A stretch of 64,000 bases of DNA, from NCBI GenBank assembly GCA_025355995.1, contig JANXYQ010000031.1, forward strand, positions 1-64,000. The letters run 5' to 3'. Under the pieces are notes generated by a model that made no database searches, was not told where the DNA came from, and saw only the letters and a program-made list of their open reading frames with translations. This DNA comes from Spirochaetaceae bacterium (GTDB lineage Bacteria > Spirochaetota > Spirochaetia > Treponematales > Rectinemataceae). The translations under genes were made by a program, and so were the position numbers. This document shows, piece by piece, positions 18,138 through 25,576 of this stretch (positions are counted from its first letter, which is position 1; each line of letters begins with the position of its first letter).

Positions 18138-18917
18138 CTAGCCCGGCGCGAAAAGCTTGAGGGGAAGACGGCCGCGGATTCCCATGCGGTCGCCCTTGAT
18201 GACGATGACCGAGAGGATATCCGGGCTTCCTTCGGCCAGGTCGAGGGCCCTTTCCAGGTCCTCCTCGCCGGCGACGGCATTGCCTATCCTGGTAGCCCAG
18301 GCGTCGGCGAGGGCGGCGTCCGGCGCCCCGCCCCTCGAGCGACAGGCTATCATGGCCGCGTCGGCCTTCCCCAGGCTGAGGGAGGGACCGACCGTCCCGC
18401 TCGAAGTGCACAGTCCCAGGGGCGAGTATTCCCGCGGGATCGAGAGGCCGACGCGGTCCGAGAGCGGAGAGCTCCCGGCGAAAACCGAGGCGTCGATCGC
18501 GTCCTCGAACTTCAGCCATAGGTCCCCGCCGTTCTCGACGATCAGCTCGCGGCAGCGGAACTCGGCCGCCATGGCGCGCCCGACGAAGGACGAGACGGCG
18601 CCAGCCACCGCGGCCATGGGCCCGACCCCGGCCTTCGTCCCCGCCTCGAGCATCGCAGCCGCGATGGGCGGCGCCTCGGGATCGAGGTAAATCGGGACCA
18701 GGCTCGAGCGGAATTCGGGGCGTCTGGCGATATATGCCTCGAGCTCGAGGCGGAGCCGCCGCGCACGCGTCGCGGCGAAGTCTTCCATGTCGGGCGAGAA
18801 AGAGGGAGGGTCGACGCCGATCCAGAGGTCCGTCTCCTTGTAGGAGACGGTGAAGGAGGAGAAACGCGAGCCCATCCCCGCCCGATAGCCGCGCGCGCGG
18901 TAGTCCGTGCCGCTCAC
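18138..18917 (-). CDS. UPF0280 (ApbE-like) protein, homocysteine synthesis partner
   Basis: A 259-residue protein of the UPF0280/COG2122 family, distantly related to ApbE flavin transferases. Visible family segments are VENGGDLWLK and CTSSGTVGPSLSLGKADA. COG2122 was linked genetically with COG1900 and its NIL-ferredoxin to homocysteine formation from sulfide in Methanosarcina. Here it is the third gene of exactly that set. The start is GTG, overlapping the stop of the ferredoxin gene (GTGA); the codons upstream of it belong to the ferredoxin gene in another frame. The exact reaction is not established; sulfur handling or ferredoxin maturation are the options I know of. Confidence 0.87.
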   Translation of the reverse strand: MSGTDYRARGYRAGMGSRFSSFTVSYKETDLWIGVDPPSFSPDMEDFAATRARRLRLELEAYIARRPEFRSSLVPIYLDPEAPPIAAAMLEAGTKAGVGPMAAVAGAVSSFVGRAMAAEFRCRELIVENGGDLWLKFEDAIDASVFAGSSPLSDRVGLSIPREYSPLGLCTSSGTVGPSLSLGKADAAMIACRSRGGAPDAALADAWATRIGNAVAGEEDLERALDLAEGSPDILSVIVIKGDRMGIRGRLPLKLFAPG

Positions 18918-19324
18918 TCCCCGAATTTCAGGCTGATGAGGCCGAAGGGGCAGGCCTTGACGCAGAGGCCGCAGGCTATGCACTTCTCGCGGTCCACGGC
19001 GAGCGCCCATTCGGGGGTCGTCATGGAGAGGCAGCCCGAGAAGCAGACTCCGGTGCAGGAGCCGCAGTGCACGCAGTCCTCCTCGCGGACCGAGAGGGAG
19101 CGGGCGATGGGCGTGAGGGTGACCGAGACCGAGGCGAGGTACTCCCGGCTCTCCGCGAGCCGCTCGCTCTCGCCCTCGAGCTCGACGAGCATGCTGCCCT
19201 CCTGGCCCGAGGAGATCTCGGCCCTGAGGATGTTCACCTTTATGTCGAAGCGCTTGACCAGGGTGTAGATCACCGGCTCGTCGACGACGGCGCTCGAGTA
19301 CTCGAGGACGTATTTCTCCCTCAT
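18914..19324 (-). CDS. NIL-domain ferredoxin of the sulfide assimilation set
   Basis: A 136-residue protein. The N-terminal NIL domain (about 1-75) is an ACT-like small-molecule fold otherwise seen on MetN methionine importers. It is followed by a two-cluster 4Fe-4S ferredoxin: Cys84, 87, 90 and 94, then Cys115, 118, 121 and 125. An extra Cys98 follows the first cluster. The protein likely supplies electrons or sulfide-derived sulfur to the homocysteine biosynthesis protein encoded just upstream. The ATG overlaps that gene's stop (ATGA), and its own stop overlaps the GTG of UPF0280. Confidence 0.9.
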   Translation of the reverse strand: MREKYVLEYSSAVVDEPVIYTLVKRFDIKVNILRAEISSGQEGSMLVELEGESERLAESREYLASVSVTLTPIARSLSVREEDCVHCGSCTGVCFSGCLSMTTPEWALAVDREKCIACGLCVKACPFGLISLKFGE

Positions 19325-20475
19325 CTCGACCTCTCCCTGGCCGCGAGCCCCGCGACCGTGCTGCGCGCGGGCAGGTCCTGCACCGGAGCCGCCAGCGCGA
19401 AGGCCCCCGAGGCCACCTGGCGCTTCAGGAGCTCGGCGATCTCCCTCGCCTTCTTGAGGCTCGAGAGCGGGGCCGTCCGCACTTTCTTGCCCTCGACCGC
19501 GACGTATCCGGAGCGCAGCTCCTCGTAGCTCGTCCTCGCGAGGGCGGGATGGCCCTCCGCGCCGTAGTCGCAGACGAGGACCGGTATGTCGCGGTTGCGC
19601 ACCGAGACCGCGGCTGCCAGGTTCTCGTCCAGGACGGGGATCGGTATGCCGATGCCGAGGTAGAGGGTCACACCGTACTTCTCGAAGTAGGCCGCGCGCA
19701 GGTAGTCGGCGGACATCTCCTTGGCGTCGGCAGTCAGCATCAGGGTGGCCGCGTTGCTCTCGGGCACGCCTCGCTCGTTGCGCGGCTTGCTTGTATTGAA
19801 CTGCGTGCCCCGCCACGAGACGAAACCCTGGGCTCCCGCGAGGAAGACCCTCGTTCCGATGCCTATCGTGCGGAGATAGGGGTCGTTGAGCAGGGGCGAG
19901 AGCTCGCCCGAGGTCGAGTAGTTGACGTTGCCCCGCCGAGGCAGGAGGCTGCCCATATAAGTATACAGCTCGCGCTCGGTCGAGTTGGTGGCGGCCGCGT
20001 AGTTCTGGTAGGCGTTGCGCGGATTCACCATCGTGATCTCGTTGACGAGGTCCTTGCGTATCCAGGTCTCGATCTCGCGTCGGGGGTAGCAGTCGGTGCC
20101 CTTGCCCCGAGCCTTGAGCAGGAGCTCCTCCCCGCGGACCAGGGCCTCGATGAGGTGGGCGCCTCCGTAAGCCGGGTCCTCGGGCGAGGCCTCCGTCGCG
20201 CCTATGTAGGCGTCGACCGCGGCGACGCCGCCGAAGACCGGTACGCCGTTCAGCGTGATGGACTCCATGCGCAGGGGCGGGCTCGTGTGGCCGAAATTTA
20301 TGAAGCAGCCCGAGGAGCACATCGCGCCGAAGGTTGCGGTCGTCACCACGTCGACCTTTCGCGCGATTTCCGAGGGTTTGAGCTCCTCGGCCATCCTCGA
20401 GACTTCCTCGGCCGTGAGTATCACCGCTTCGCCCGCAGCGATCTTGGCGTTTATCTCTTCGTAGCTCTTGGCCAT
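19321..20475 (-). CDS. Homocysteine biosynthesis protein (HcyBio, DUF39/COG1900)
   Basis: A 384-residue protein of the DUF39/HcyBio family, which in methanogens converts aspartate semialdehyde and sulfide into homocysteine without O-acylhomoserine. Conserved cysteines thought to carry sulfur are visible: Cys53 and Cys57 in AMCSSGCF and Cys129 in GKGTDCYPR. NFGHTSPP and a C-terminal region starting near 370 complete the family pattern. It heads a three-gene operon with NIL-ferredoxin and UPF0280. A Shine-Dalgarno (ACGGAGG) precedes the ATG. The aspartokinase/homoserine dehydrogenase at 23102, from the same pathway branch, is close by on the other strand. Confidence 0.92.
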   Translation of the reverse strand: MAKSYEEINAKIAAGEAVILTAEEVSRMAEELKPSEIARKVDVVTTATFGAMCSSGCFINFGHTSPPLRMESITLNGVPVFGGVAAVDAYIGATEASPEDPAYGGAHLIEALVRGEELLLKARGKGTDCYPRREIETWIRKDLVNEITMVNPRNAYQNYAAATNSTERELYTYMGSLLPRRGNVNYSTSGELSPLLNDPYLRTIGIGTRVFLAGAQGFVSWRGTQFNTSKPRNERGVPESNAATLMLTADAKEMSADYLRAAYFEKYGVTLYLGIGIPIPVLDENLAAAVSVRNRDIPVLVCDYGAEGHPALARTSYEELRSGYVAVEGKKVRTAPLSSLKKAREIAELLKRQVASGAFALAAPVQDLPARSTVAGLAARERSR

Positions 20476-20577: not shown

Positions 20578-21291
20578 ATGGCAAAAACGCTGTTCTTCGT
20601 CGAGGCCGCCGCCTTCGCCCTCCTCGCGGTTATCTTCCCCCTCATGGCGACAGAAGCCGCGAAAGCCTTCATCCTACCCATCGTCATCTCGCTCATCATT
20701 CCTCTCGCGGGCGCCACTGCCTCCTGGCCGACACGCGCCGTCTTCCGCGCCCTTGCCGCCGCCTTCTCATCCAGAAGTCTGGAGAACAACGACGACGACT
20801 CGGTCCTAATCCTCGAATCGCTCGTGGCCTTCTCCCGCGCGGCGGCTGTCCTCGGCTTCCTCTTCGCCATCGTCGCCATCGGGAGGCGCCCTCCCGCGAC
20901 CGGCGATACCTGGACCCTCCTCGGCGCCTTCCTCGCCGCCTACGCCCTCCTCAACGCCGAGCTCTGGAGCATCCTGGCTAAGGCGGTAGCGGAGCGATTC
21001 TCGGGCGAGCGAACAAACGAGCTTGTCGCGGAGGCCAGCGCGCGCGAGGACGGCCTCATGAGGGAGGCGGATTTCGCGCGGAGCTACGGCCTCACCCCGA
21101 GGGAGTGGGAGACCGCTGCCCTCATCGCCGCCGGGAAAAGCTACAAGGAGACCGCCTACGAGCTCGGCATCTCGATCAAAACCGTGAAGGTCCATATGAG
21201 CCGCGTCTACGAGAAGACGGGATCGGCCTCCAACGTCGGCTTTGTCCTCCTGTTGCGCTCAGGATCGACGTCTACTACAAAAGTCCAATAA
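20578..21291 (+). CDS. Membrane-anchored LuxR-type HTH protein, copy 1
   Basis: A 237-residue protein. Four predicted membrane helices fill residues about 5-145 (starting FFVEAAAFALLAVIF), then a polar linker and a C-terminal LuxR/GerE helix-turn-helix (about 170-230; LTPREWETAALIAAGKSYKE, then GISIKTVKVHMSRVYEKTG). There is no ligand-binding domain of the AHL type and no receiver domain. It should bind DNA from the membrane, with the membrane part sensing something. It is followed 82 bases later by a small MotA-like membrane protein, and the same two-gene unit is repeated directly downstream. I know of no name for this arrangement. Confidence 0.85.
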   Translation: MAKTLFFVEAAAFALLAVIFPLMATEAAKAFILPIVISLIIPLAGATASWPTRAVFRALAAAFSSRSLENNDDDSVLILESLVAFSRAAAVLGFLFAIVAIGRRPPATGDTWTLLGAFLAAYALLNAELWSILAKAVAERFSGERTNELVAEASAREDGLMREADFARSYGLTPREWETAALIAAGKSYKETAYELGISIKTVKVHMSRVYEKTGSASNVGFVLLLRSGSTSTTKVQ

Positions 21292-21297
21292 CGCGAG

Positions 21298-21347
21298 CGG
21301 CCCGACGCAGCGATATTCGCGATTGTCGGACAGCGGCGATCGGGCCG
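21298..21347. repeat. Inverted repeat between LuxR-membrane and MotA-like genes
   Basis: CGGCCCGA (21298-21305) pairs with TCGGGCCG (21340-21347), with a further weak inner pairing. It starts just after the stop of the first LuxR-membrane gene. It could be an attenuator or an operator. The matching spacer after the second copy (22562-22630) shares sequence words but the stem is less complete. Confidence 0.45.
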
Positions 21348-21373
21348 TAAATTGAATCCGACGAGGAGCTATT

Positions 21374-21805
21374 ATGCGCCGTTTTATCCTGAGCACCCTA
21401 GCCCTATTTTTCACCGCGATCTTCGCCTTCGTTTTCGAAGGAGGAGAAATGATGGATTTGCTCCTCCCCTCCCCACTCATCATCGTCGGCTGTGTTTCCG
21501 GCTTCGCAGTACTCGCGGTCTGGAGCGTCAAGGATTGGGGCGGGGCCTGGAAGGACGCTTTCGCCAAGGTCCCAGGTGGGTCAAGCGCCACGACATCGGC
21601 GGCGCTCTGGTCCTTCTACGAGAAGGCATGCTATGCCGCAGGCGTCGTGGGCTTCCTCTTCGGAATAACCATCATCGGGAAGAATTCTGGCCCCATGGAT
21701 AAACTCGGGGAGTCGATCGCGCTCAACTGTATCACGCCCATCCTCGCCATCCTCTTCGGCCTGGTAGCGCGGATTCTCAGGGCCAGGGTCGAAAGCAAGA
21801 GGTAA
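21374..21805 (+). CDS. Short MotA/TolQ-like membrane protein, copy 1
   Basis: A 143-residue protein with four hydrophobic segments. The first half (FEGGEMMDLLLPSPLIIVG) recalls the start of MotA, where GG and a Pro-Ser/Ala-LLIV-GG-G pattern bracket the first two helices. The second half (CYAAGVVGFLFGITIIG, then ITPILAILFGLVARIL) recalls MotA helices 3 and 4, including a proline at the corresponding place. The large cytoplasmic loop and charged motor residues of real MotA are missing, and no MotB partner is near. I infer a miniature ion-channel-like or scaffold protein working with the LuxR-membrane gene upstream. The start follows GAGGAG at 21363-21368. Confidence 0.7.
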   Translation: MRRFILSTLALFFTAIFAFVFEGGEMMDLLLPSPLIIVGCVSGFAVLAVWSVKDWGGAWKDAFAKVPGGSSATTSAALWSFYEKACYAAGVVGFLFGITIIGKNSGPMDKLGESIALNCITPILAILFGLVARILRARVESKR

Positions 21806-21813
21806 ATTCCGCT

Positions 21814-21847
21814 ATCCAGGCGGCAGGTGATATACTGCCGCCTGGAT
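21814..21847. promoter_or_regulatory. Perfect 12-bp inverted repeat abutting a start codon
   Basis: ATCCAGGCGGCA (21814-21825), loop GGTGATATAC, TGCCGCCTGGAT (21836-21847), with the ATG of the second LuxR-membrane gene at 21848. The -10-like TATACT (21831-21836) lies in the loop. It could be an operator, a transcription attenuator, or a hairpin that hides the ribosome landing site. Confidence 0.75.
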
Positions 21848-22561
21848 ATGGCACGCACCCTCTTCTTCCTCGAGGCCTTGGCCCTCGCCGCCCTCTCCCT
21901 CCTCCTGCCGATCATCGAATCCCAAGCGGCGGCGGCCTTCATAGTCCCCTTCGCCCTCTCCGTCCTCCTGCCCCTGGCCTGCGTCCTTTCGGTCTGGCCG
22001 ACGAGGGCCGTCCGCGAAGCCCTCCTCATCGTATTCTCTGCCAAAGGGCATGATGCCGGATCCGGGGAGGCTGCACTCGTCCTCGAATCGCTAGGGACCT
22101 TTTCCCGGCCCGTATCGGTCATGGGCATCCTGCTCGCCCTCGCGGTCGCCGCCGCGCGCCTTCCCTCGTCCGGCGACGCGAGGATCTGGTCCTGGCTCGG
22201 AGCCTACCTCTGCCTCTATGCCCTGGTAAACGTCACGCTCTGGCAGACTCTCGCGGCCTTGGCCAAGCGCATAGCCGTTTCCCCGGCGACTTCGGGCCTG
22301 AAGGCGCCGGAGGCTATCGAAGCGATAACTGCAAAGCACGCTCTCTCTCCCAGGGAATCGCAGGCCGCCATCCTAATAGCGCAAGGACGTAGCTATAAGG
22401 AAACGGCGGCCGAGCTGGGCATCTCCATCAAGACGGTGAAGACGCACATGGGTCGGGTCTACGAGAAAACGGGGGCGGCCTCCAACGTGGCGCTGTCCCT
22501 GCTCTTCCGTGGGGCGATGAAATCCGGCGAGAATTCAGTGAATCCTACAAAGGTCCGATAG
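21848..22561 (+). CDS. Membrane-anchored LuxR-type HTH protein, copy 2
   Basis: A 237-residue paralogue of the protein at 20578, colinear along its length and roughly half identical by eye. Four membrane helices are followed by the HTH (LSPRESQAAILIAQGRSYKE, then GISIKTVKTHMGRVYEKTG). Both copies share a C-terminal TKV tail. The ATG at 21848 is preferred over a GTG seven codons upstream, because copy 1 begins at the equivalent MA(K/R)TLFF and the upstream codons lie inside an inverted repeat. The membrane parts have diverged more than the HTH, suggesting different inputs but similar DNA targets. Confidence 0.85.
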   Translation: MARTLFFLEALALAALSLLLPIIESQAAAAFIVPFALSVLLPLACVLSVWPTRAVREALLIVFSAKGHDAGSGEAALVLESLGTFSRPVSVMGILLALAVAAARLPSSGDARIWSWLGAYLCLYALVNVTLWQTLAALAKRIAVSPATSGLKAPEAIEAITAKHALSPRESQAAILIAQGRSYKETAAELGISIKTVKTHMGRVYEKTGAASNVALSLLFRGAMKSGENSVNPTKVR

Positions 22562-22630
22562 CGCGGCAAGTCGGCAGCGGCGATAGTCGAAGCGTCGGTC
22601 GGGCCAGGGCTCGCCGCAAAGGAGCTAAGC

Positions 22631-23065
22631 ATGGCAAGATTCCTGTTCGGTACGGTGGCGATCTTCGCTACCTTCGTGTCTCTGTTCCTCATCGAGGGTG
22701 GGAATCTCCTCTCTTTACTGATGCTCTCGCCCTTGCTCATAGTCATCCTCGTGCCGGCCTTCGCCGTCCTGGCGGTGTGGAGCCTCGGGGACTGGGGCCG
22801 GGCCTGGAAGGACGCCCTCGCTCGCGGCGACGCCGATAGCGCGCCGGATTCGGCCGAGCTCTGGGCTTTCTACGAGAGGATGTGCTACCTGGCCAGCGTC
22901 GTCGGCTTCATCCTGGGCCTCGTGATCATCCTTTCCAACTTGGGCGACATTTCGACCATAGGGAGGCCTCTCGCCGTCGGCCTGATGACGCCCGTATACG
23001 CGATCCTCTTCGGGATCGTGGCGAGGATCCTCCGCGCGAGGGTGGAGAGATCCCGCCGAGCTTGA
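22631..23065 (+). CDS. Short MotA/TolQ-like membrane protein, copy 2
   Basis: A 144-residue paralogue of the protein at 21374, with the same four-helix plan. Landmarks are IEGGNLLSLLMLSPLLIVI in the first half and YLASVVGFILGLVIILSNLG followed by GLMTPVYAILFGIVARIL in the second. This copy is closer to the MotA helix 3-4 pattern (GxxxGLxxxLxNL ... MTxxYA). It is preceded by a Shine-Dalgarno-like AGGAG at 22620-22624. It ends 36 bases before the ThrA start; ThrA has its own promoter inside that gap. Confidence 0.72.
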   Translation: MARFLFGTVAIFATFVSLFLIEGGNLLSLLMLSPLLIVILVPAFAVLAVWSLGDWGRAWKDALARGDADSAPDSAELWAFYERMCYLASVVGFILGLVIILSNLGDISTIGRPLAVGLMTPVYAILFGIVARILRARVERSRRA

Positions 23066-23101: not shown

Positions 23102-25576
23102 ATGAAGATAGCGAAGTTCGGCGGTACCTCTGTCGGCAGCCCCGAGGCCGTGAGGGCCCTGGTGGGAATCGTCCGCGAGCGCGGGCAAGCGGTGGTGGTG
23201 GTATCCGCCTTCTCGCGCGTCACGGACGCCCTCATAGCTACGGCCCGGGCCGCGGCCGCCCGCGATTCCTCGTGGGTCAGCCGCTTCGAGGCCATCGGCG
23301 AGCGCCATCGCGAGATGGCGGCGGCCCTCGTGAAGGGTGAGAGCGCCTCGGCTGAGGCCTACGACAGGATCGAGACCCTCCTCATCGAGCTCCTCGAGGT
23401 GCTCTCGGGGATCAAAGCGCTGCGAGAGCTCTCGGACAGGACCCTCGACCTCGTGATGAGCTTCGGCGAGCGGCTCTCCTCCGTCGTGATCGCCGCCGCC
23501 TTCCGCGACGCCGGGATCGACGCCGTCCCCGTGGACGCCCGGAGCCTGATCGTCGCCGACGGGGACTACGGCAACGCCCGGCCCCGAACCGAGGCCACGG
23601 TCAAGGCCATCCGCTCCCGCCTCTTCCCCCGCGCCGATGTGGGCGCCGTGGGCGACGCGAGCGGCGGTCCCCTGCCCATCGTGACGGGCTTCATAGCCTC
23701 CACCCCCTCCGGAGAGACGATCACCCTCGGCCGCGGCGGCTCCGACTACACGGCCGCGATAATCGGCGCCGTCCTCGGCGCCGAGGAGGTGGAGATCTGG
23801 ACCGACGTCGACGGCATACTCACCGCCGACCCGCGCAAGGTCCCCGACGCCTTCAGCCTGGACTCCCTGAGCTACGAGGAGGCGATGGAGCTCTCGCACT
23901 TCGGCGCCAAGGTCATCTACCCGCCGACCATTCAGCCCGCCCTCGAGCGCGGCATCCCCATACGCATACTCAACACCTTCAACCCATCCTTCCCGGGCAC
24001 CACCATCGCCTCGGACGCGGCGCCCTCGCGCTATCCGGTCAGGGGCATCTCGTCGATCTCCGCTGCCGCGCTGGTGCGGGTGCAGGGACCCGGCCTGGTC
24101 GGCGTCATGGGGATCGCGATGCGCCTCTTCGGCTGCCTCGCCCGGCGTCGCGTCAACATCATCCTCATCTCCCAGGCCTCGAGCGAGCGCTCCATCTGCT
24201 TCGCCGTCGTGCCCACCGACAAGGACGCCGTCGTCGCCGCCATAGCCGAGGAGTTCGGCCCCGAGCTGGAGGACGGCCGCATCGGGCCGCCCGTCATCGA
24301 GGTCGACAAGGCCATAATCGCCATAGTCGGCGAGAGGATGAAGCACACGCCCGGCATCTCGGGCCGCGTCTTCCACTCGCTCGGCCGCAACGGCGTCAAC
24401 ATCTCGGCCATCGCCCAGGGCTCTAGCGAGCTCAACATCTCAGCGGTAGTCGACGCCGCGGACGAAGCGAGGGCGCTCAACGCGATCCACGAGGCCTTCT
24501 TCCTCTCGGGAACGAGGTCGGTCAACGTCTTCCTCGCCGGCTGCGGCCTCGTCGGGGGCACCCTGCTGCGGCAGATCGCCCGCCAGCGGACCGTCCTCTC
24601 CGAGGACTACGCGGTCAGGCTCGAGGTGATCGGCATCGCCAACTCGCGCAAGATGCTGATCCGGGAGTCGGGCATCGGCCTCGAGGGATGGAAGGCCCAG
24701 GTCGAGGCCGAGGGCGAGAAGACGGACCTCGCGGCCTTCGTGGACAAGGCGAGGGAGCTCAGCCTGCCCAACGCGGTGTTCGTAGACTGCACCGCGAGCG
24801 ACGCCGTGCCCAAGCTCTACGAGCGCGCCCTGCGGGGCTCCACCGCGGTCGTCACGCCCAACAAGCGTGGCAACACCGGGAGCCTCTCTTTCTACTCCTG
24901 CCTCATGAGGGCGACCCGCGAATCCGGCTCTCCCTATCTCTACGAGACGACCGCCGGAGCCGGGCTGCCCGTAATCTCGACGCTGCACGACCTCATGGTC
25001 TCCGGCGACACCATCGTCCGTATCGAGGCCATGCTTTCGGGGACCATCGGCTACGTCCTCTCCAACTACGACGGATCCACCAGCTTCGCCAGCCTCGTGC
25101 GCGAGGCCAAGGAGCTAGGCTACACCGAGCCCGACCCCCGCGACGACCTCTGCGCCGCGGACGCCGCCCGCAAGGCCCTCATCCTCGCGCGGGAGTGCGG
25201 CCGGGACCTGGAGTTCTCCGACATCGCCATCGAGCCCCTCCTGCCCGCCTCCTGCATGGAGGCGCCCTCGGTCGACGCCTTCTTCGCCGAGCTCGAGCGC
25301 GAGGAGCCCTTCTTCCGCGCGATGCTCGAGCGCGCCAAGGGAGCGAACCTCGTCTACGCCGCCACCATCGACGAAGCCGGCATCAGGCTGGGCCTGCGCG
25401 CGGCCGCCCAGGGCGACCCGCTCTTCGGCCTGCGCGACGCGGAGAACGTCGTGGCCTACACGACCGAGCGCTACGCCAAGCTGCCCCTCGTGGTCCGCGG
25501 CCCCGGCGCCGGCGGCGAGGTCACGGCCGGCGGCCTCTTCGCGGACATCGTTCGAATCGCGAAATCTCTCGTGTGA
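23102..25576 (+). CDS. thrA: Bifunctional aspartokinase/homoserine dehydrogenase
   Basis: Catalyses the first and third steps of the aspartate pathway to threonine and methionine. The 824 residues comprise aspartokinase (about 1-300; KFGGTSVGSPEA, FIASTPSGETITLGRGGSDY), a regulatory region of paired ACT domains (about 310-455; VGVMGIAMRLFG, AIIAIVGERM) and homoserine dehydrogenase (about 465-824; NAD-binding VFLAGCGLVGGTLL, then TPNKRGNTG and the ELGYTEPDPRDDL catalytic loop). The order and length match E. coli ThrA/MetL. Its intermediate, aspartate semialdehyde, is the substrate of the DUF39 protein at 19321. Feedback by threonine is plausible from the ACT domains but not shown. Confidence 0.96.
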   Translation: MKIAKFGGTSVGSPEAVRALVGIVRERGQAVVVVSAFSRVTDALIATARAAAARDSSWVSRFEAIGERHREMAAALVKGESASAEAYDRIETLLIELLEVLSGIKALRELSDRTLDLVMSFGERLSSVVIAAAFRDAGIDAVPVDARSLIVADGDYGNARPRTEATVKAIRSRLFPRADVGAVGDASGGPLPIVTGFIASTPSGETITLGRGGSDYTAAIIGAVLGAEEVEIWTDVDGILTADPRKVPDAFSLDSLSYEEAMELSHFGAKVIYPPTIQPALERGIPIRILNTFNPSFPGTTIASDAAPSRYPVRGISSISAAALVRVQGPGLVGVMGIAMRLFGCLARRRVNIILISQASSERSICFAVVPTDKDAVVAAIAEEFGPELEDGRIGPPVIEVDKAIIAIVGERMKHTPGISGRVFHSLGRNGVNISAIAQGSSELNISAVVDAADEARALNAIHEAFFLSGTRSVNVFLAGCGLVGGTLLRQIARQRTVLSEDYAVRLEVIGIANSRKMLIRESGIGLEGWKAQVEAEGEKTDLAAFVDKARELSLPNAVFVDCTASDAVPKLYERALRGSTAVVTPNKRGNTGSLSFYSCLMRATRESGSPYLYETTAGAGLPVISTLHDLMVSGDTIVRIEAMLSGTIGYVLSNYDGSTSFASLVREAKELGYTEPDPRDDLCAADAARKALILARECGRDLEFSDIAIEPLLPASCMEAPSVDAFFAELEREEPFFRAMLERAKGANLVYAATIDEAGIRLGLRAAAQGDPLFGLRDAENVVAYTTERYAKLPLVVRGPGAGGEVTAGGLFADIVRIAKSLV

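What the first reader, a model, noticed from the sequence alone, without database searches (positions are those of the whole stretch)
20578..23065. Tandem duplication of a membrane LuxR-type regulator plus a mini MotA-like protein
Two consecutive units each hold a four-helix membrane protein with a C-terminal LuxR HTH, then a ~144-residue four-helix protein whose halves resemble MotA helices 1-2 and 3-4 without the motor loop. Both members are duplicated in order, so the pairing is functional rather than accidental. A membrane-tethered transcription factor paired with a channel-like protein suggests direct sensing of ion flow or membrane energy, which I do not know as a described system.
Basis: partly seen in the sequence, partly recalled or inferred. 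Interest (0 to 1): 0.78.

Follow-up and report, generated by a model that had tools for sequence, protein, structure and literature searches.

The report
Membrane transcription factors built from MotA-like domains
Spirochaetes have reused the membrane core of the flagellar motor's stator protein MotA, without its torque loop and most ion-path residues, next to or fused to transcription factors, which points to an undescribed kind of membrane signalling module that probably does not work as an ion channel.

Summary
Window 20578-23062 carries two tandem units, each a membrane LuxR-type regulator (237 aa) followed by a 143/144-aa four-helix protein (mini). The mini is a true MotA relative. It aligns end to end with spirochaete MotA (hhalign 99.4%, E 2e-21; reversed control 0.8%) apart from the deleted ~82-residue torque loop. 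Its AlphaFold model matches PomA at 1.6 Å over 114 residues. Beyond the finding, the membrane half of the LuxR protein is itself a mini-MotA domain (98.6%, E 1e-15), so each pair is the same domain with and without an HTH. Pairing is conserved: all 7 LuxR-TM genes found in 294 genomes of the order lie beside a mini. Across the phylum, 39 of 48 mini loci examined sit next to or are fused to a transcription factor: 10 LuxR-HTH and 29 ECF sigma, most of the latter as sigma - one-TM protein - mini. About 2% would be expected by chance. Residues that carry ions through PomA are mostly lost and no MotB-type aspartate partner was seen, so sensing of ion flow is not supported. Most likely a stator-derived membrane scaffold controls access of a DNA-binding domain; that mechanism is inferred. 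The duplication is old.

The parts
20578..21291 (+). LuxR-TM 1: mini-MotA-type membrane domain (about residues 1-141) + linker + GerE/LuxR HTH (about 172-223), 237 aa
21374..21805 (+). mini-MotA 1: 143-aa four-helix protein, MotA TM1-4 without the torque loop
21848..22561 (+). LuxR-TM 2, 237 aa (start ATG 21848 by homology, not the GTG at 21827)
22631..23065 (+). mini-MotA 2, 144 aa
20561..20566 (+). TATACT, -10-like element 11 nt before the LuxR-TM 1 start; a TATACT just before the start is also seen in G001, so the LuxR mRNA is probably leaderless (no SD)
   Evidence: direct reading;
21831..21836 (+). TATACT, -10-like element 11 nt before the LuxR-TM 2 start
   Evidence: direct reading
21813..21848 (.). 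perfect inverted repeat, 14-nt arms, 8-nt spacer, wrapped around that -10 element; one of only three perfect inverted repeats with arms of 11 nt or more (loop up to 12) in the window; candidate operator
21364..21368 (+). Shine-Dalgarno AGGAG of mini 1 (SD-like sequence before the mini gene in all orthologues inspected)
22620..22624 (+). Shine-Dalgarno AGGAG of mini 2
19321..20475 (-). neighbour, divergent: HcyBio homocysteine biosynthesis enzyme (possible target, inferred)
23102..25576 (+). neighbour, co-directional 36 nt downstream: aspartokinase/homoserine dehydrogenase; same synteny in congener G001

Best explanation
Each unit encodes two versions of one membrane domain, a MotA-type four-helix bundle that has lost the torque loop and most ion-path residues. 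One carries a cytoplasmic LuxR HTH, the other (mini) has none. I propose that they co-assemble in the membrane as a MotA-like ring or smaller hetero-oligomer. The state of this assembly, set by membrane or envelope conditions or by the ratio of the two subunits, decides whether HTH domains can pair on DNA. Shown: homology, shared fold, conserved pairing, and a parallel linkage of minis to ECF sigma factors. Inferred: co-assembly, stoichiometry, signal, direction of control and targets. The mini is the general membrane part; the transcription factor (LuxR fused or adjacent, or ECF sigma through a one-TM protein) is an exchangeable output.
For: LuxR membrane domain homologous to mini (hhalign 98.6%, E 1.2e-15, reversed 0.2%; LuxR fusions L079 and L081 hit the mini profile at 5e-24 and 2.5e-22). 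All 7 LuxR-TM genes found in the order lie beside a mini, in 6 genomes with mostly different neighbours. 39 of 48 mini loci lie beside or are fused to LuxR-HTH or ECF sigma genes against 16 LuxR and 14 sigma hits in the whole own genome. Most sigma loci have a ~100-aa one-TM protein between sigma and mini. Structural Gly/Tyr/Pro positions of MotA TM3-4 kept, ion-path residues mostly lost. SD before every mini inspected and leaderless-type LuxR starts in this genus suggest mini in excess.
Against: No physical interaction, oligomeric state or DNA binding was tested; only monomer models were made. The LuxR model is modest (pLDDT 71, pTM 0.44) and Foldseek finds only its HTH with confidence. LuxR-TM against MotA directly is weak (13%), so that link runs through the mini. 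Some minis have no transcription factor beside them (L025, L035, L075, L083, L097). The one-TM protein of the sigma operons has no Pfam or PDB match, so calling it an anti-sigma is a guess from position and topology.
Confidence: 0.5

Rival explanations
1. The mini is a working ion channel (H+ or Na+) and the LuxR protein reads ion flux or membrane potential.
For: Stator fold and homology to ion-conducting MotA/PomA; some distant minis keep a Thr at the T158 position (13 of 51) and Ser/Thr at the T185 position (31 of 51).
Against: T186- and TM3-Pro-equivalents not among the commonest residues in minis although invariant in 21 spirochaete MotAs; no MotB-type Asp-bearing partner beside the LuxR pairs or in the sigma operons. 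PomA T158A, T185A, T186A and PomB D24N abolish conduction (PMC6677748).
Confidence: 0.12
2. The mini is a dedicated membrane partner (stabiliser, chaperone or inhibitor) of a transmembrane transcription regulator, in the manner of ToxR-ToxS or TcpP-TcpH, without forming a MotA-like ring.
For: Same gene arrangement, regulator followed by membrane partner in one operon; ToxS is a co-activator of membrane-bound ToxR (PMC7496328 abstract).
Against: Partner and regulator here share one membrane domain family, which favours co-assembly by like domains; the same family also serves ECF sigma operons.
Confidence: 0.28
3. The LuxR protein works alone and the mini is a passenger left from gene duplication with loss of the HTH.
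For: The domain is shared, so the mini could derive from a LuxR-TM by HTH loss, or the reverse; one mini occurs alone (L025).
Against: Minis are conserved at 36-57% identity between genomes with coding-type base composition, carry a good SD in every case inspected, are beside every LuxR-TM gene found in the order, and are much more widespread than the LuxR fusion.
Confidence: 0.05

Closest known systems
Flagellar stator subunit MotA/PomA
   Same: Four-helix membrane fold, collinear TM1-2 and TM3-4 homology, conserved Gly/Tyr/Pro positions in TM3-4; model to PomA 1.6 Å over 114 residues
   Different: About 82-residue cytoplasmic torque loop absent; ion-path Thr and TM3 Pro mostly lost; no MotB next to it; linked to transcription factors
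ExbB / TolQ (generic ion transporters)
   Same: MotA_ExbB superfamily; two distant minis pass the Pfam cut-off
   Different: Mini is far closer to MotA (99.4%) than to spirochaete TolQ/ExbB-like proteins (19.7%), and has MotA's TM1-2
Transmembrane transcription regulators (ToxR/TcpP/CadC type; PMC10269533)
   Same: DNA-binding domain and membrane domain in one protein, membrane partner encoded next door
   Different: LuxR/GerE HTH at the C-terminus of a MotA-like four-helix domain; partner homologous to the regulator's own membrane domain; the survey's main text does not mention LuxR or MotA
ECF sigma / anti-sigma operons
   Same: In relatives, minis sit downstream of an ECF sigma gene and a small one-TM gene
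   Different: The window has no sigma gene; the one-TM protein matches no anti-sigma family; a MotA-like third component was not found described in the papers searched

Membership tests
MotA/TolQ/ExbB superfamily (PF01618) | TM3-TM4 core recognised by profile | tested here: met
   P0004 alone is below the Pfam cut-off (15.7 vs 22.9 bits) but hits PomA/MotA in NCBIfam (6.7e-7); two distant minis exceed the Pfam cut-off (25.0 and 31.3 bits); profile-profile 99.4%, reversed control 0.8%
Flagellar stator A subunit (MotA/PomA) | MotA-type four-helix TM domain | tested here: met
   Collinear TM1-2 and TM3-4 blocks; AlphaFold model, first ten VIA-align rows all flagellar stators, Z 14.3 to 10.6 against 8.3 for the next row
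Flagellar stator A subunit (MotA/PomA) | Cytoplasmic torque-generating interface | tested here: not met
   Mini 55-70 replaces MotA 56-138; most of the loop is missing
Flagellar stator A subunit (MotA/PomA) | Ion-path residues (PomA T158, T186; TM3 proline) | tested here: not met
   MotA 21/21 at each; mini: T158-equivalent Thr 13/51, T186- and Pro-equivalents not among the commonest residues listed (46 and 45 of 51)
Flagellar stator A subunit (MotA/PomA) | Partner B subunit with one TM helix carrying Asp | tested here: inconclusive
   None in the gene neighbourhoods of LuxR pairs; one-TM protein of sigma operons lacks a TM Asp. Unlinked partners were not searched
LuxR/GerE regulators (PF00196) | GerE HTH above curated cut-off | tested here: met
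   49.4 and 46.5 bits vs 23.5
Transmembrane transcription regulators | HTH and TM helices in one chain | tested here: met
Transmembrane transcription regulators | Controls transcription while in the membrane | not testable with these tools
   Needs experiment
ECF sigma / anti-sigma system | Sigma-70 region 2/4 gene in the module | tested here: not met
   Not in the window units; present in 29 relatives' loci (Pfam-confirmed for three)

The most novel reading that the evidence does not exclude
A phylum-wide signalling class in Spirochaetota in which a stator-derived, torque-loop-less MotA ring controls transcription initiation, with two exchangeable outputs: LuxR HTH fused to or beside the ring subunit, and ECF sigma held through a one-TM protein that threads the ring as MotB threads MotA.
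Probability: 0.4. Interest if true: 0.88.

Novelty: new variant of a known kind. Interest (0 to 1): 0.72.

Why it matters
MotA relatives are known as ion-driven motors (flagella, TonB and Tol systems, gliding, phage defence). A family that keeps the stator fold, drops the torque loop and most ion-path residues, and is tied to transcription factors in most of the loci examined would show that the fold can serve as a sensor or scaffold. It would also give spirochaetes an unrecognised membrane signalling route and give stator research a natural loop-less four-helix MotA to study. The published stator phylogeny I read (PMC12505986) does not mention transcription in its main text.

Tried and rejected
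Direct LuxR-TM to MotA comparison is weak (13%); the link is through the mini. The first TolQ/ExbB alignment was contaminated with unrelated ORFs and gave 0.8%; after cleaning, 19.7%. The one-TM protein was searched in PDB and Pfam without result. An 86-bp tandem repeat between LuxR and mini in G001 is not a genome-wide element. Literature searches for MotA with ECF sigma, LuxR or spirochaetes found no description, but the library holds only openly licensed papers. Only window proteins and the search for related loci relatives were sent to structure prediction, so model depth was limited to 8 and 6 sequences. Considered and dropped: recent tandem duplication; chance ORFs. The question whether minis lost the loop or never had it was left open; no rooted tree was made.

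Full report
What is there. The window (G000:C43; the named relatives found are Spirochaetaceae or Spirochaetota MAGs) has four co-directional genes between a divergent homocysteine biosynthesis operon (HcyBio 19321-20475, NIL/ferredoxin 18914-19321) and an aspartokinase/homoserine dehydrogenase gene (23102-25576). Order: LuxR-TM 1, mini 1, LuxR-TM 2, mini 2. Gaps are short (82, 42, 69 and 36 nt). The two LuxR proteins are 45% identical and the two minis 54%. The HTH domains exceed the GerE cut-off.

The mini is MotA without the torque loop. A profile of 14 minis searched against 393 spirochaete genomes finds full-length minis in many families and also hits the TM3-4 region of ~260-aa MotA-sized frames in most genomes. 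Against 21 extracted MotAs it aligns as two blocks, roughly mini 2-55 to MotA 3-56 and mini 70-138 to MotA 138-205, E 1e-11 to 3e-19. Profile-profile comparison aligns all 147 columns with one large deletion, 99.4%, E 2e-21; reversing either side gives under 1%. Against spirochaete TolQ/ExbB-like proteins the figure is 19.7%. The AlphaFold model (pLDDT 81, pTM 0.72) matches ten flagellar stator entries first: PomA Z 14.3, 1.6 Å over 114 residues, Z at least 10.6 in all ten, next unrelated row 8.3. Foldseek E-values are modest (best 0.015), as expected for a short helical protein against a target with an inserted domain.

The LuxR membrane domain is the same domain. It matches the mini profile in several relatives and by profile-profile comparison (98.6%, E 1.2e-15; reversed 0.2%). 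The LuxR protein is therefore a mini-MotA domain joined to an HTH, and the pair is one domain with and without its output. A direct LuxR-TM to MotA comparison is weak (13%), so that link is transitive.

The pairing is real. In 294 genomes of the order, seven LuxR-TM genes occur (two here, one each in G001, G003, G010, G015, G030), and every one is next to a mini. G001 keeps the window's synteny with one unit; the other genomes have different neighbours. In G093 and G124 the LuxR gene ends at one contig edge and a mini starts at another, consistent with a split pair. Identity and the LuxR tree place unit 1 with the G001 unit (54% and 57%, against 45% and 54% within the window), so the duplication predates the species split; the mini tree agrees but with weak support (44).

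A second, larger form. Of 48 mini loci examined, 29 have an ECF sigma gene upstream on the same strand, ending about 130-480 nt before the mini ORF. In 26 of these I could extract an intervening ~85-135-aa protein with one predicted TM helix, often with an N-terminal motif like MKLEKxLKxYYxxE. Pfam confirms sigma-70 region 2 in the three I tested, and two minis exceed the MotA_ExbB cut-off. Ten loci have LuxR-HTH, either fused to a mini-like domain beside a mini (the window type, and L079/L081) or as a neighbouring membrane LuxR protein of another kind (L096, L099, L100). Nine have neither; two of those are at contig ends, one is a fragment and one may be a shortened MotA. With 16 GerE and 14 sigma-region-2 hits in the whole own genome and roughly 4000 genes (my estimate from genome size), a gene would have one of these among three neighbours about 2% of the time; 39 of 48 is far beyond that. 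The loci were chosen by the mini alone. The sigma HMM was built from five of these loci and then applied to all, so the count for those five is not independent.

Does it conduct ions? PomA-T158, T185 and T186 and PomB-D24 are needed for Na+ passage (PMC6677748). In 21 spirochaete MotAs the T158, T186 and TM3-proline equivalents are invariant. In 51 minis Thr remains at the first in 13; Thr at the second and Pro at the third are not among the six commonest residues, which cover 46 and 45 of the 51. The 8 LuxR domains have none of the three. Structural positions are kept better: a TM3 Gly 46/51, the loop Gly 41/51, TM4 Tyr 39/51, TM4-end Pro 37/51. The one-TM proteins have no aspartate in their TM helix. 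This argues against stator-type conduction but cannot exclude another path.

Mechanism proposed. Like subunits with and without an output domain suggest a mixed assembly whose composition or conformation sets HTH pairing. Minis have SD sequences in all genes inspected, while the LuxR genes of this genus start 11 nt or less after a TATACT element without SD, which suggests leaderless translation and mini in excess. A perfect 14-nt inverted repeat (21813-21848) wraps the -10-like element of LuxR-TM 2, a candidate operator. The generic promoter scan did not flag these two sites. In the sigma form, a one-TM protein plus a MotA-like protein recalls the A5B2 plan of MotAB, with the cytoplasmic N-terminus of the one-TM protein as a possible sigma holder. 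All of this paragraph beyond the sequence features is inference.

Known or new. The stator phylogeny PMC12505986 divides the superfamily into flagellar and generic groups by torque interface or condensed cytoplasmic domain and does not mention transcription in its main text. The survey of transmembrane transcription regulators PMC10269533 notes spirochaete enrichment but not LuxR or MotA in its main text. No paper in the held library was found on MotA-like proteins with ECF sigma or LuxR. I rate it a new variant of a known kind (membrane transcription regulator with a membrane partner) built from a stator-derived domain; the categorically new reading is in the section on the most novel reading.

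Noticed in passing
L028-L034, L069, L071-L074, L076-L078, L080, L082, L084-L091, L093-L095, L098: Operon of ECF sigma gene, ~100-aa one-TM gene and mini-MotA gene, recurring across many families of the phylum; the one-TM family has no Pfam or PDB match.
   Followed up: partly
L033, L034, L099, L100: Double minis: two mini-MotA domains fused in tandem in one ~313-343-aa protein, next to either a sigma gene or a membrane LuxR-HTH gene.
   Followed up: partly
window 18138-20475 (-) and 23102-25576 (+): The regulators sit between a homocysteine biosynthesis locus and an aspartokinase/homoserine dehydrogenase gene; in G003, G015 and around the lone mini of G010 (L025) the nearby genes also look like amino-acid or sulfur biosynthesis (read by eye from sequence).
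   Followed up: no
window 21813-21848: Perfect 14-nt inverted repeat with 8-nt spacer over the -10-like element and start codon of LuxR-TM 2.
   Followed up: partly
G001:C118:10364-10536: Two identical 86-bp tandem copies, each with its own inverted repeat, between LuxR and mini of the congener; not found elsewhere in that genome.
   Followed up: yes
L092 4740-5195: 152-aa MotA-like protein that looks like a shortened MotA rather than a member of the transcription-linked minis; no transcription factor next to it.
   Followed up: no
G093:C37/C76 and G124:C47/C93: In two genomes of different families the assembly breaks between LuxR-TM and mini, both at contig edges.
   Followed up: no
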